This document shows positions 33,141 to 37,467 of a stretch of DNA of 37,565 nt, in pieces. The notes under the pieces are model-generated. The model was not told the DNA's origin. It searched no databases and saw only the letters and a program-made list of their open reading frames with translations. Source of the DNA: Candidatus Zixiibacteriota bacterium (GTDB lineage Bacteria; Zixibacteria; MSB-5A5; UBA10806; 4484-95); NCBI GenBank assembly GCA_021159005.1, contig JAGGSN010000049.1, positions 1 to 37,565 of the forward strand, in the 5' to 3' direction. Within the stretch, counting starts at the first letter, position 1. Each line of letters opens with the position of its first letter. The translations under genes and the position numbers were made by a program.

Positions 33141-35123
33141 CTACACAAACAATGGCGCAAGCACCAATGATACAATCGCCATCAGCTTGATAAGGATGTT
33201 CATCGACGGGCCGGAGGTGTCTTTGAACGGGTCGCCGACTGTATCGCCGACTACCGCAGCTTTGTGAGCATCACTGCCCTTGCCGCCATACGCGCCAGCC
33301 TCGATGAGTTTTTTGGCATTATCCCAAGCGCCGCCGCCGTTTGACATCATAAGAGCCATTAACACGCCGGTAAGAGTAGCGCCGCCGAGAAGACCGCCTA
33401 AAGCTTCCTTGCCAAGAATAAAGCCAACAAGAATCGGAACAACAATCACTAAAAGCCCGGGCGCAACCATTTGCCGAAGAGCGCCTACGGTAGCAATATC
33501 AACACAACGTTTGCTGTCAGGTTTGGCTTTCCCTTCCATCAAACCGGGGATTTCTTTAAACTGACGGCGAACTTCCTGTACCATTTTAAATGCCGCTTTG
33601 CCGACAGCGCCCATAGTAAGCGAAGCAACCAAGAACGGCAATATACCGCCTATAAACATGCCAACAATAACAGTAACATTCATTAAATCAATAGCTTTAA
33701 GATGAACGGCGGAACTGTAGGCAGAGAACAACGCCAAAGCTGTTAAAGCGGCAGAACCGATTGCGAAACCTTTACCAATAGCGGCAGTTGTATTTCCCAA
33801 AGAGTCAAGATGATCAGTGATTTTTCTGACATCTTTTCCTAATCCGGCCATCTCGGTAATACCGCCGGCATTATCAGCAACCGGACCATAAGCATCGACT
33901 GCCATAGTAACACCGATTGTACCAAGCATGCCAACTGCGGCAATACCAATACCATATAACCCGGCGAAATAATAAGCAAAATAGACTGCCATAGAAATTA
34001 CAAGCACCGGCAAAGCAACGGATTGCATGCCAACCTCTAAACCGGCAATAATAGTAGTAGCCGGTCCAGTTTTGGCGGATTCGGCAATTTTGCGAACCGG
34101 AGCCGCGGCTGTGTAATATTCTGTCAGTAGTCCTAAAATTATTCCGGCGACATTTCCTATAAGAACCGCCCAAAAGACGCTTATCACAACTTCTGAATTG
34201 GCAATCAAGAAATATGTAGCCACAAGCATAACTACAGAGCCAACATAAGTTACAATCCTTAATACCGCCGCTGGATTCAATTTTGAAAATATGTTCACAG
34301 AAAGTATTCCAAGCATCGAGGCAACAATTCCAACTGTAACAATTAGCAGCGGCAAGCTCATATAGTCCATTCTATAATCCGGTATATTTCCCCACATTGA
34401 TGTAGCCGCTATGGTTATCGCCGCAATAATTGAACCAACATAAGATTCAAATAAGTCGGCTCCCATTCCGGCTGTGTCGCCAACATTATCGCCAACATTA
34501 TCAGCAATAACAGCTGGGTTGCGAGGGTCATCTTCAGGAATACCAGCCTCAACTTTGCCTACCAAATCAGCGCCAACATCAGCAGCTTTTGTGAAAATAC
34601 CGCCGCCGACACGAGCAAATAAAGCTATCGATGATGCGCCCATAGCAAACCCGGTTACATTTACAAAAGCATCGGGTGAATTAAAAAAGTAAAAATATAT
34701 GCCTACTCCAACCAATCCTAAGCTGGCAACAGACATGCCCATTACAGCGCCGCCCGAGAAAGCGATTTTTAAAGCAGCTGGTTCGCCTGAATCTTTGGCA
34801 GCTGCGGCAGTTCTAACATTCGCCCGAGTAGCGGCTTGCATTCCAAATACGCCGGCTATCATTGAACAGAAAGCGCCGCTAATAAAACAAATAGCGGTAA
34901 GAATTCCAATTTTCCAGGCTAACAACGCAAAAACCACCACTATAAAGATAGCCAGAATAGAGTATTCCCGCTTGAGAAATACCATAGCGCCGTCATGAAT
35001 AACATCCGCTAACTCTACCATCTGTTTTGTTCCTGGCGATTTCCGTTTAATTGACAGAAACAGAAAAAAAGCAAACAGAAGACCAATTGCACCCAGCAAA
35101 ACAGCAAGAAGACCGGTGTCCAT
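33141..35123 (-). CDS. hppA: Membrane-bound ion-pumping pyrophosphatase (K+-dependent type)
   Basis: The product is 660 aa with about 16 membrane helices. It hydrolyses pyrophosphate and pumps H+ and/or Na+ out of the cytoplasm. Substrate-binding motifs include [23 protein letters not shown]-type sequence, [33 protein letters not shown] and [27 protein letters not shown] has Ala where K+-independent enzymes have Lys, which marks K+ dependence. With the FESY glutamate, this makes a Na+ or Na+/H+ pump more likely than a plain H+ pump (inference). GGAG precedes the ATG. It is monocistronic with its own terminator. Confidence 0.96.
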
Positions 35124-35417: not shown

Positions 35418-36617
35418 ATGTATAATCTACTCATGAATGCAGCTGTTTTCAAATATAAAAGAGAAATATCATCGCCGGTTAAGGCTGTGCTTTACAGCAG
35501 CTTCAATATCGACAATAACCGCTTAGCCGTGATTCTCAATTCCCGTCAGTCGAAAACCCCAGCCGGTAATGATACCTGGATTGTGAATTCTATTAAAGCG
35601 GTACAGAATGCTATTGAAAACAATCTTATTCTCATTACCGGCTATGGCATGAATACATGGGAGCTAATCTGCAGCGCCGGCGGCGATTATAACGGTTACC
35701 AGATTATTATCTGTCCGATTAACTCGAAAAATGATATCGACTTAATCATAAATAATACTCTCGTTGATTTTGACCTCAATCGGGATAAAACCGGCTGGCT
35801 GTTTTTTAAAGCTGTTTCACCTTCCAAATCTCCCAAAGCAAGCTGGCCAATCAGGGATAAACTGGCTTTAAGCCTTGCCAATGTTATCATACCTGTTAGT
35901 ATCAGACCGAGCGGCAATTTGCTAAATCTTATAAATCAATACAGCAAAGATAATACTAAGACCATCATGGAGAATTACAGGATTCCCTATTTAAAAAGCA
36001 AAAGAATCCCAAATATTATGCCTATGGATGTCGGCGATAATCTTAAAAATATACTCTGGAACTACATCACCCACTGGACCAGAACCTGTAATGGTCCCTG
36101 GCCATTTGAATCCAGAAAAGAATATTATCAAAGGCTTATTTGTTCCAATGAGTGCTATCCTAACACAGCCTTCAATACATTAAAAAGTATCCTGCTTGAG
36201 AAAAAAATATATGCTTCATCAACACATCACAGGAAAGGAATTAATGCGGCGGCTTTTACCAGTCTTCCCCCCAAGGACGTACTATCATTTATGCACTGGC
36301 GACGACGGTATGTTCGCTGGAATTTCGAACCGTATGGCATTGCTATTGCGCGAGAAACCGCTATTCGAACAGGAATAAAACCGGTTATTTACGGAAAACC
36401 GGCATTATTTGACAGATTAACTGAAAATGATAAACCATATTTCCAAAGCGAGGGCGTTGATGGCGGCAATTGGCGCGAGGAGGGCGAGTGGCGATATATC
36501 GGTGATTTTACTCTGGCTGATATTAAGCCTGATGATATGATAATCATAGTAAAAAAACCGGCAGAAATTGAATTATTACAGGAGATTACCGAATCAAAGG
36601 TTGTTTCGTTTATATAA
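35418..36617 (+). CDS. Unrecognised two-part protein: Rossmann/SLOG-like N-terminus, AbiGi-like C-terminus
   Basis: The product is 399 aa with no signal peptide or membrane helix. Residues 30-175 read as alternating strands and helices: RLAVILNSR, ILITGYGMNTWELICSAGG, QIIICPIN, then NVIIPVSIRPSGNLLNLI. This resembles the order of motifs in DprA/LOG (SLOG) nucleotide-binding domains. Residues 250-380 (LKSILLEKKIYASS..., AAAFTSLPP, WNFEPYGIAIARETAIRTGI, KPVIYG, EWRYIGD) resemble the AbiGi/DUF2971-like pattern in phage-resistance proteins. Both assignments are by eye and uncertain. It starts at 35418 or an ATG at 35433, with no SD. It is alone, next to repeats. A plain metabolic role remains possible. 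Confidence 0.7.
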   Translation: MYNLLMNAAVFKYKREISSPVKAVLYSSFNIDNNRLAVILNSRQSKTPAGNDTWIVNSIKAVQNAIENNLILITGYGMNTWELICSAGGDYNGYQIIICPINSKNDIDLIINNTLVDFDLNRDKTGWLFFKAVSPSKSPKASWPIRDKLALSLANVIIPVSIRPSGNLLNLINQYSKDNTKTIMENYRIPYLKSKRIPNIMPMDVGDNLKNILWNYITHWTRTCNGPWPFESRKEYYQRLICSNECYPNTAFNTLKSILLEKKIYASSTHHRKGINAAAFTSLPPKDVLSFMHWRRRYVRWNFEPYGIAIARETAIRTGIKPVIYGKPALFDRLTENDKPYFQSEGVDGGNWREEGEWRYIGDFTLADIKPDDMIIIVKKPAEIELLQEITESKVVSFI

Positions 36618-36620
36618 TTC

Positions 36621-36825
36621 GGGCTTGCTGAATAATAAGGAACTGATTGCTAAACGCCGCTTGGTAACTGTATTTATCTTAGCTGATGGTTTTTTGTTGG
36701 AAAAGTCATTGCGAGGAGTCCGCCAATGGCGGGCGACGCGGCAATCTGCAGCTTGTTTAGTACCATATAAACAGATTGCTTCACTTCGTTCGCAATGACT
36801 GCTATTAGAGTTTTTCAACAAGCCC
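36621..36825. repeat. Nested repeat element with GGGCTTG-TGAA inverted ends
   Basis: The 205-base element is bounded by GGGCTTGCTGAA (36621-36632) and TTCAACAAGCCC (36814-36825), 12 bases with one mismatch. It contains a partial GCCGCTTGGTAAC copy (36651-36670) and a complete GTCATTGCGAG...GCAATGAC element (36705-36799) related to 5704-5832. It encodes no transposase and looks like a MITE carrying another repeat. It begins four bases after the stop of the preceding gene. Confidence 0.75.
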
Positions 36826-36837
36826 TAATGGGAATGT

Positions 36838-37167
36838 TTACTCTGGCTGCCAAACGGCGCTTGGTAGCCAGAGAAAAATATTACCATACGGTATGTGCAA
36901 TCTTTTTTGCTTATTTATTAGAAAATCCGGATATTCTTCCTGAATCATTTCGTTAATGTTTTTCCCATATATTTCTGATGAAGCGCCCAAGTCTTTCAGG
37001 TTTTCCCGCATATATTGATTTAGCATTTTCTGTTGTTCTTTGGTTTTTTGCCTTTGCGCCTCGATTTTAAGTATAACCTTATCATAACCCTTATCAGCAA
37101 TATAACTCATGACCCCAAGAAGTATGACAAAGGTAACCATCGAAGCAACAACGATTCGAATATTCAT
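36838..37167 (-). CDS. Small single-helix membrane protein, unknown function
   Basis: The product is 109 aa: one N-terminal membrane helix (MNIRIVVASMVTFVILLGVMS), then a charged helical, coiled-coil-like segment rich in Lys/Glu/Gln (KIEAQRQKTKEQQ...). The frame is open to 37203, but GGAGG eight bases before the ATG at 37167 sets the start. The last 11 residues (LWLPSAVWQPE) are encoded by the hairpin repeat at 36841-36873, so the original C-terminus has probably been replaced. No family recognised. Confidence 0.65.
   Translation of the reverse strand: MNIRIVVASMVTFVILLGVMSYIADKGYDKVILKIEAQRQKTKEQQKMLNQYMRENLKDLGASSEIYGKNINEMIQEEYPDFLINKQKRLHIPYGNIFLWLPSAVWQPE
36841..36873. repeat. Best-formed copy of the dispersed hairpin repeat, overlapping a gene end
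   Basis: CTCTGGCT (36841-36848) pairs with AGCCAGAG (36866-36873), with a further CCAA/TTGG pair inside, around a loop ACGGCGC. Related sequences are at 683-705, 5892-5918, 7054-7070 and 36651-36670. Confidence 0.7.
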
Positions 37168-37247: not shown

Positions 37248-37467
37248 GTCATTCCCACACTGCCCGCGTCATTCCCAATACTGCCTACGTCATTCCCAAC
37301 TTGATTGGGAATCCAGAGATTGGTCATGCCGATACCTCCTGCCTGCCGGCGCCCGCCTGTCTGCGGACACGGGGCACGGTATTTTTGTTATCCACTATTG
37401 GTTTAAAAAACAGCCCCGTTCGCCACCGGCGGATTTCTGGATTCCCCCGCCGCGGCGGGGGAATGAC
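37248..37467. repeat. GTCATTCCC repeat cluster: short tandem repeats and an inverted element
   Basis: GTCATTCCCA recurs at 37248, 37268 and 37289, a 20-21-base period with diverged spacers. The third copy forms ATTCCCAA-TTGA-TTGGGAAT and opens an inverted element that closes with GGGGGAATGAC (37457-37467). Inside, CCAGAG/TTTCTGG and a GC-rich CCCCCGCCGCGGCGGGGG palindrome are visible. It is far more GC-rich than its surroundings and holds no gene; the rest of 37168-37565 is also non-coding. Confidence 0.7.

What the first reader, a model, noticed from the sequence alone, without database searches (positions are those of the whole stretch)
35418..36617. Possible sensor-effector protein joining a SLOG-like and an AbiGi-like domain
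Seen: a soluble 399-aa protein with a Rossmann-like N-terminal half (GYGMNTW...SAGG, then IIPVSIRPSGNLL) and a C-terminal half with YGIAIARE, KPVIYG and EWRYIGD. Known: SLOG domains bind nucleotide signals in several defence systems, and AbiGi-like sequences occur in abortive phage resistance. Inference: the fusion could sense a nucleotide and act on a cell target, as a single-gene defence or stress system. The flanking repeats fit an accessory spot, but no other defence gene is nearby.
Basis: inference. Interest (0 to 1): 0.55.

Follow-up and report, generated by a model that had tools for sequence, protein, structure and literature searches.

The report
Core SLOG–ADP-ribosyltransferase-like fusion protein
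A protein that looked like a one-gene phage defence joins a DNA- or nucleotide-binding domain to an enzyme fold that normally attaches ADP-ribose, and it is an inherited core gene of most families of one bacterial phylum, so it more likely does everyday cell work than phage defence.

Summary
The 399-aa ORF is real, and the domain guess was largely right. A confident AlphaFold2 model (pLDDT 92) has an N-terminal DprA-type SLOG domain (ShosA Z 13.2, DprA Z 11.6). Its C-terminal domain has an ADP-ribosyltransferase (ART) fold nearest DarT: all seven best entries are DarT, Z 8.0-8.7. That domain is homologous to AbiGi by profile comparison (99.0%, E 3e-18). ART-type residues are kept in 50 relatives: H219 50/50, T221 49/50, E355 49/50, E357 50/50. 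Links to DarT and DprA are structural only; sequence profiles do not find them.

The defence reading is not supported. The gene is found in 107 of 132 genomes of the phylum (Candidatus Zixiibacteriota) and in 67 of 70 good genomes of the 12 families that have it. Its tree keeps all 12 families whole. It was not found in phages or plasmids and has no constant partner. In three families metal importers lie upstream (18 of 57 loci). The nearby repeat is dispersed. Best reading: a housekeeping ART, probably acting on nucleic acid. Catalysis and target are untested.

The parts
35418..36617 (+). Whole gene, 399 aa, SLOG-ART (AbiGi/DarT-like) fusion; monocistronic in this genome (divergent upstream gene, convergent downstream ORF)
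35451..35978 (+). N-terminal DprA-type SLOG (Rossmann-like) domain, residues about 12-187; loops NSRQ..P.G.D.W (41-54), S.GM.TWE (75-82), RD (146-147), PVS.RPGGNL (159-168)
   Evidence: model; ShosA Z 13.2 over residues 11-187, DprA Z 11.6, YpsA/Moco carrier/LOG Z 8-10, ThsA SLOG Z 6-8; conservation
36033..36614 (+). C-terminal AbiGi-like domain with ADP-ribosyltransferase fold, residues 206-399
   Evidence: model; DarT Z 8.0-8.7; hhalign to AbiGi proteins 99.0%
36072..36080 (+). H219-W-T221, candidate ART H-x-T/S motif on the first strand (DarT H13-I14-T15)
   Evidence: H 50/50, T 49/50; DarT NAD contacts from PMC9967889; correspondence inferred from order of strands, not from superposed coordinates
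36480..36488 (+). E355-x-E357, candidate catalytic ExE on the late strand (DarT QAE160)
   Evidence: E355 49/50, E357 50/50; correspondence inferred
36700..36830 (.). Dispersed repeat downstream, not part of the gene
   Evidence: 11 places in the own genome

Best explanation
It is a chromosomal, housekeeping-type NAD+-dependent ADP-ribosyltransferase. The DprA-like SLOG domain binds single-stranded DNA or another nucleic-acid or nucleotide ligand and brings or switches the AbiGi/DarT-like ART domain, which uses H219 and E357 to move ADP-ribose from NAD+ onto a nucleic-acid target, as a regulated and reversible mark. Shown here: the two predicted folds, homology of the C-domain to AbiGi, residue conservation, vertical core inheritance, lack of a constant partner. 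Inferred: NAD+ use, the nucleic-acid target, the direction of control, and reversal by the chromosomal macrodomain protein found in 119 of 129 genomes.
For: Full model pLDDT 92.1, pTM 0.89; N-domain ShosA Z 13.2 and DprA Z 10.6-11.6, Foldseek's first 11 hits (E under 0.001) DprA and ShosA. C-domain alone pLDDT 90.8: the seven best entries are all DarT (Z 8.0-8.7, 131-142 residues aligned), and the next rows are Tpt1/KptA and ADP-ribosylating toxins (that some of these titles are ARTs is recalled). H219 50/50, T221 49/50, E355 49/50, E357 50/50 fit the H-x-T and [EQ]xE positions of DarT (PMC9967889 passages, and the DarT alignment). Core and vertical. A DarT acting as a chromosomal regulator is known: M. 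tuberculosis DarT marks oriC and promoters (PMC12170906, abstract and passages). Macrodomain genes in 119 of 129 genomes.
Against: Profile comparison does not link the C-domain to DarT (hhalign 1.7%) nor the N-domain to 24 DprA of the same phylum (0.7%), so both links rest on predicted folds. Z 8-9 is only just above the level that the tool calls common. No DarT or DprA Pfam match among the 50 members at E up to 0.1. No sure equivalent of DarT's catalytic R51. Macrodomain genes are also present in families that lack this gene (e.g. f4, f5, f6, f14, f15), so they are no specific partner. Nothing shows that DNA is the target.
Confidence: 0.42

Rival explanations
1. Sensor-effector with an NADase-like output: the SLOG domain senses a small nucleotide signal (as in ThsA, which binds cyclic ADP-ribose isomers) and switches on the ART-like domain, which degrades or cyclises NAD+ or modifies a protein in a stress response.
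For: SLOG domains of ThsA match the N-domain (Z 5.8-7.7); SLOG domains are proposed as sensors of ADP-ribose derivatives (PMC9503650 passages).
Against: The best matches are DprA/ShosA, well above ThsA (Z 11-13 against 6-8); no gene for a signal-making partner (TIR or similar) was seen to recur beside it.
Confidence: 0.22
2. Metal-homeostasis enzyme: the protein acts with Mn/Zn import, for instance by modifying a regulator or transporter or a target sensitive to metal or oxidative stress.
For: Metal-import or DtxR-type genes lie upstream on the same strand within six genes in 18 of 57 loci, in 13 of 57 within one operon-like run; importers of three unrelated families (Nramp, ABC-3 with ZnuA, ZIP) plus DtxR-type regulators. 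Only one member of these clusters lies elsewhere in the 57 loci, in a cluster of ABC ATPases.
Against: Confined to three families (f7 13 of 22, f9 2 of 2, f19 3 of 5); 0 of 28 loci in the other nine families, which have other upstream genes (LPG synthase-like, ECF transporter, SpoIID-like). Related loci are not independent.
Confidence: 0.13
3. Anti-phage defence gene.
For: C-domain homologous to AbiGi; ShosA, from a defence system, is the best fold match of the N-domain (its role is recalled); plasmid AbiGi genes lie beside zeta toxin and Shedu, helicase/ATPase genes or IS elements.
Against: Core single-copy gene with a family-true tree, unlike the true DarT in the same phylum (9 of 129 genomes); none in phages or plasmids; housekeeping neighbours. 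Fast sequence change (27-53% identity) would fit an arms race but is not proof of it.
Confidence: 0.12
4. Inactive ART fold used as a binding or antitoxin-like module, as the Pfam name of AbiGi ('antitoxin') suggests.
For: Pfam calls AbiGi an antitoxin; lactococcal AbiGi was not toxic in E. coli (PMC3985639 passages).
Against: The residues expected for catalysis are the most conserved of the domain; there is no constant partner to be neutralised.
Confidence: 0.1

Closest known systems
AbiGi family (PF10899; PADLOC AbiGi; one relative annotated DUF2971 in NCBI)
   Same: C-domain homologous over about 150 columns, with H-x-T-R, FTE/FS.L.P, EPYG, G..PV.Y and W..E.EWR in the same order
   Different: AbiGi are stand-alone proteins of about 200-250 aa, here seen on plasmids; this one is fused to SLOG and is a core gene; below the Pfam cut-off
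DarT (PF14487)
   Same: Predicted fold; H-x-T and [EQ]xE positions
   Different: No sequence-profile match; no DarG beside it; DarT in this phylum is patchy (9 of 129) and in the two loci listed sits with a macrodomain gene
DprA / ShosA (SLOG superfamily)
   Same: N-domain fold, Z 10.6-13.2; similar order of Gly-rich loops by eye
   Different: No profile match to 24 DprA of this phylum; true DprA is present as well in 128 of 129 genomes, so this is no replacement
ThsA of Thoeris (SIR2-SLOG)
   Same: An SLOG domain joined to an NAD+-using (here: presumed) domain
   Different: Order reversed, ART-like instead of SIR2, nearer DprA than ThsA in fold, no ThsB-like partner seen

Membership tests
SLOG superfamily | Rossmann-like SLOG core | tested here: met
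   Z up to 13.2 to ShosA, 10.6-11.6 to DprA, 8-10 to YpsA, LOG and Moco carrier; predicted model
SLOG superfamily | Match to a SLOG-type sequence model in Pfam | tested here: not met
   None in 50 members at E up to 0.1
LOG enzymes | PGGxGTxxE catalytic motif (recalled) | tested here: not met
   Consensus there is PVSIRPGGNLxxLI
DprA (PF02481) | Pfam model or profile similarity | tested here: not met
   No Pfam match; hhalign 0.7%
ART superfamily | ART fold | tested here: met
   First 25 rows are DarT, Tpt1/KptA and ADP-ribosylating toxins (some titles assigned from recall); the match is to a predicted model
ART superfamily | Conserved H-x-[TS] and [EQ]xE | tested here: met
   H219 50/50, T221 49/50, E355 49/50, E357 50/50; structural correspondence inferred
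ART superfamily | NAD+-dependent transfer of ADP-ribose | not testable with these tools
   needs enzyme assay
DarT (PF14487) | Pfam model match | tested here: not met
   0 of 50 at E up to 0.1; hhalign to 7 DarT-family proteins 1.7%
DarT (PF14487) | Catalytic R51 equivalent | tested here: inconclusive
   R295 (47/50) and R297 (48/50) are conserved, but no coordinates were at hand to superpose
DarT (PF14487) | Adjacent DarG/NADAR antitoxin | tested here: not met
   The window genes scanned near it are H+-PPase, DUF3795, glycosyltransferase and a small ORF without a match; no constant partner in 57 loci
AbiGi (PF10899) | Pfam gathering score | tested here: not met
   16.1 bits against 22.4; 6 of 50 members match at E up to 0.1, best 0.0009
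AbiGi (PF10899) | Homologous domain by profile comparison | tested here: met
   hhalign 99.0%, E 3.1e-18 to six AbiGi, all PF10899 matches; N-domain control 0.6%
Anti-phage defence system | Patchy, mobile distribution | tested here: not met
   107 of 132 genomes, all 12 families one side of a branch
Anti-phage defence system | Protects against phage | not testable with these tools
   needs phage challenge

The most novel reading that the evidence does not exclude
A phylum-wide, vertically inherited ADP-ribosylation system outside toxin-antitoxin and defence modules: one enzyme that couples a DprA-like DNA or nucleotide reader to a DarT/AbiGi-like writer, in part of the phylum under the control of metal-import operons. 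By homology, the whole AbiGi-type 'antitoxin' family would be ADP-ribosyltransferases.
Probability: 0.27. Interest if true: 0.8.

Novelty: new variant of a known kind. Interest (0 to 1): 0.52.

Why it matters
DarT-type enzymes are mostly known as patchy toxins and defence genes. A fast-changing but strictly vertical, single-copy ART fusion in most families of a phylum would mean that ADP-ribosylation serves a standing physiological role there. It also offers a testable activity for AbiGi, a family known since the 1990s only as part of abortive infection and labelled an antitoxin.

Tried and rejected

DprA replacement: rejected, DprA itself is in 128 of 129 genomes.

LOG-like phosphoribohydrolase: rejected, the motif is absent. 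Metabolic enzyme across both halves: no such match in Pfam, NCBIfam, PDB sequences or folds.

Macrodomain as specific partner: not supported, macrodomain genes (119 of 129) are also in families that lack the gene.

Sequence-profile links to DarT and DprA: sought, not found. The DarT alignment was small (7 rows).

Led nowhere: Foldseek against viral models beyond DprA-like proteins; Rfam; promoter and terminator scans (14 promoter-like sites against 6.4 in shuffles, no terminator); literature on AbiGi, DUF2971, SLOG, ShosTA (matched unrelated words), Zixibacteria, and on AbiG, DprA or SLOG with ART.

Rows dropped: of 60 stretches fetched for neighbourhoods, 57 were used; L050 and L083 dropped because the crude gene caller missed the target, L018 not entered. 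In the DprA tree row G099 appears to be a wrong reading frame (very long branch) and is disregarded. Titles such as 'Calditrichota' (L156) may be mislabelled: that locus has the neighbourhood typical of family f7.

Full report
Observation. Upstream, divergent, lies an H+-pyrophosphatase gene (33141-35123, Pfam H_PPase E 2.6e-268); other genes near it are DUF3795, glycosyltransferase and DUF4147/MOFRL genes. Downstream is a small ORF on the other strand without a Pfam match. The repeat downstream (36700-36830) has 11 places in the own genome, so it is a dispersed repeat and no sign of an island.

Sequence families. Alone, the protein matches nothing well: AbiGi in Pfam E 0.012, below the cut-off, PADLOC AbiGi E 0.0027, nothing in NCBIfam or PDB sequences. 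Among 50 relatives, AbiGi is matched by 6 in Pfam (best E 0.0009) and by 11 in PADLOC (best E 0.0002).

Distribution. In the phylum, 106 of 132 genomes have a homologue with one protein as query, 67 of 78 of the good ones. A profile search of the 26 negatives found the gene, split over two contigs, in one more (G057), and in G102 only a weak match to a separate AbiGi-like protein: 107 of 132. Seven families (f4, f5, f6, f13-f16; 17 genomes) lack it throughout. In the other twelve it is in 107 of 115 genomes, and in 67 of 70 good ones. In 102 of the 106 genomes there is one match; four (G022, G029, G048, G078) have two partial matches to different parts. A tree of 66 sequences keeps all 12 families as single groups, with 11 label changes, the least possible; shuffled mean 40. 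This is vertical inheritance. On a DprA tree used as a rough species proxy, the lacking families f6, f14, f15 and f16 group together (support 97), f4 and f5 stand apart; three changes of the label in all. The phylum is Candidatus Zixiibacteriota, judged from the titles of matching contigs of the same family (with lengths as). Outside it, relatives were found with titles of Glassbacteria, Latescibacterota, LCP-89, Fibrobacter/Chitinispirillum, Desulfomonile and Spirochaetes among the 80 kept of 121, and in the phylum of one Latescibacterota locus only 4 of 64 genomes have a full-length copy. None was found in viral contigs, plasmids or phages. For contrast, true DarT is in 9 of 129 genomes of the phylum.

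Structure. AlphaFold2 with the 50-row alignment gives pLDDT 92.1, pTM 0.89. Foldseek's 11 PDB matches with E under 0.001 are all DprA or ShosA. VIA-align gives ShosA Z 13.2 (163 residues, 3.6 A), DprA 10.6-11.6, then Moco carrier, YpsA and LOG 8-10, ThsA SLOG 6-8, all on the N-terminal half; the C-terminal half gave DarT 7omx Z 7.7. The C-domain predicted alone (pLDDT 90.8) matches DarT first in Foldseek, weakly (7omx E 0.02, prob 0.93). By VIA-align the seven best entries are all DarT (7omw, 7yk3, 7omv, 7omy, 7omx, 7omu, 8baq; Z 8.7-8.0), followed by Tpt1 Z 7.3 and a long run of ART toxins, KptA and pierisin at Z 4-5.4. The tool warns that Z near 8 can be a common arrangement; the weight comes from the list being filled with one superfamily.

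Residues. Invariant in 50: D147, P159, H219, E304, P305, Y325, G346, W352, E357, R359; T221 and E355 49/50, Y306 45/50 with F in 5. DarT holds NAD+ with H13, I14 and T15 on its first strand and needs E160 (PMC9967889, passages read; that they lie on the first strand is recalled). H219-W-T221 and E355-x-E357 fit these positions by order of strands. I could not superpose coordinates, so this mapping is inference. DarT's R51 has no sure counterpart.

AbiGi. Small stand-alone relatives of the C-domain turned up in other genomes (L170, L185, L186). tblastn with one of them reached plasmid proteins annotated as AbiGi and DUF2971. Against six annotated AbiGi proteins, all six PF10899 matches, the C-domain profile scores 99.0%, E 3.1e-18, with H-x-T and ExE aligned; against a mixed set 99.6%. 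The N-domain as control gives 0.6%. So the C-domain is an AbiGi relative, and by the fold above AbiGi may itself be an ART family. AbiGi genes on plasmids sit by zeta toxin and Shedu, helicase/ATPase genes, Fic or IS elements. Profile comparison finds no link from either AbiGi or the C-domain to DarT, nor from the N-domain to DprA.

Neighbourhoods. In 57 loci no neighbour is constant; the commonest, a subtilase gene, is in 20 of 57 within three genes. The gene has a close co-directional upstream gene in 26 of 56 loci, and a close downstream one in 1 of 56, so it is often the last gene of a unit. In family f7 (13 of 22), f9 (2 of 2) and f19 (3 of 5), metal-import or DtxR-type genes lie upstream on the same strand: Nramp, ABC-3 with ZnuA, ZIP, and iron-dependent-repressor-type regulators; 0 of 28 in the other nine families. 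The clusters were named from one to four scanned members each. Related loci are not independent, yet three unrelated importer families in one place are hard to ascribe to shared descent alone. Neighbours of relatives outside the phylum look like housekeeping genes by eye; of ten scanned with PADLOC, one weak match (E 2.5e-4).

Literature. AbiGi was not toxic in E. coli (PMC3985639, passages). SLOG fusions in viruses are with macro, NADAR, HTH, HNH, exonuclease, helicase and guanylate kinase domains (PMC9503650, passages); the passages I saw name no SLOG-ART fusion. Searches for AbiGi, DUF2971, 'AbiG' with ADP-ribosyltransferase, DprA with ADP-ribosyltransferase, and SLOG with ADP-ribosyltransferase listed no paper whose title or abstract start shows this protein or calls AbiGi an ART; that library lacks most subscription journals.

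Verdict. Domain reading right and sharpened, defence reading unsupported. The best model is a housekeeping ADP-ribosyltransferase with a DprA-type SLOG reader; activity, target and ligand remain to be tested.

Noticed in passing
L044-L048, L052-L057, L061, L062, L075, L076, L078, L084, L041 (upstream of the homologue): Importers of divalent metals of three unrelated families (Nramp, ABC-3/ZnuA, ZIP) and DtxR-type regulators precede the gene in 18 of 57 loci; in f9 the Nramp scanned (L061) carries a C-terminal universal stress protein domain.
   Followed up: partly
L176 (own genome C191): The own genome also holds a DarT-family gene (PF14487 E 2e-22) beside a macrodomain gene, that is a separate DarTG-like pair.
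   Followed up: no
L170, L185, L186; L243, L245 (viral contigs): Five stand-alone 198-247 aa proteins with the AbiGi motif series, all below the Pfam AbiGi cut-off or without a match; AbiGi is wider than its Pfam model.
   Followed up: partly
window 36643-36666 and 36843-36866; 37254-37295: Short direct repeats around the dispersed repeat downstream of the gene.
   Followed up: no
L178 (G011 C289): A DarT-family gene next to an open frame that looks like an ADP-ribosylglycohydrolase by eye instead of a macrodomain antitoxin; not scanned.
   Followed up: no
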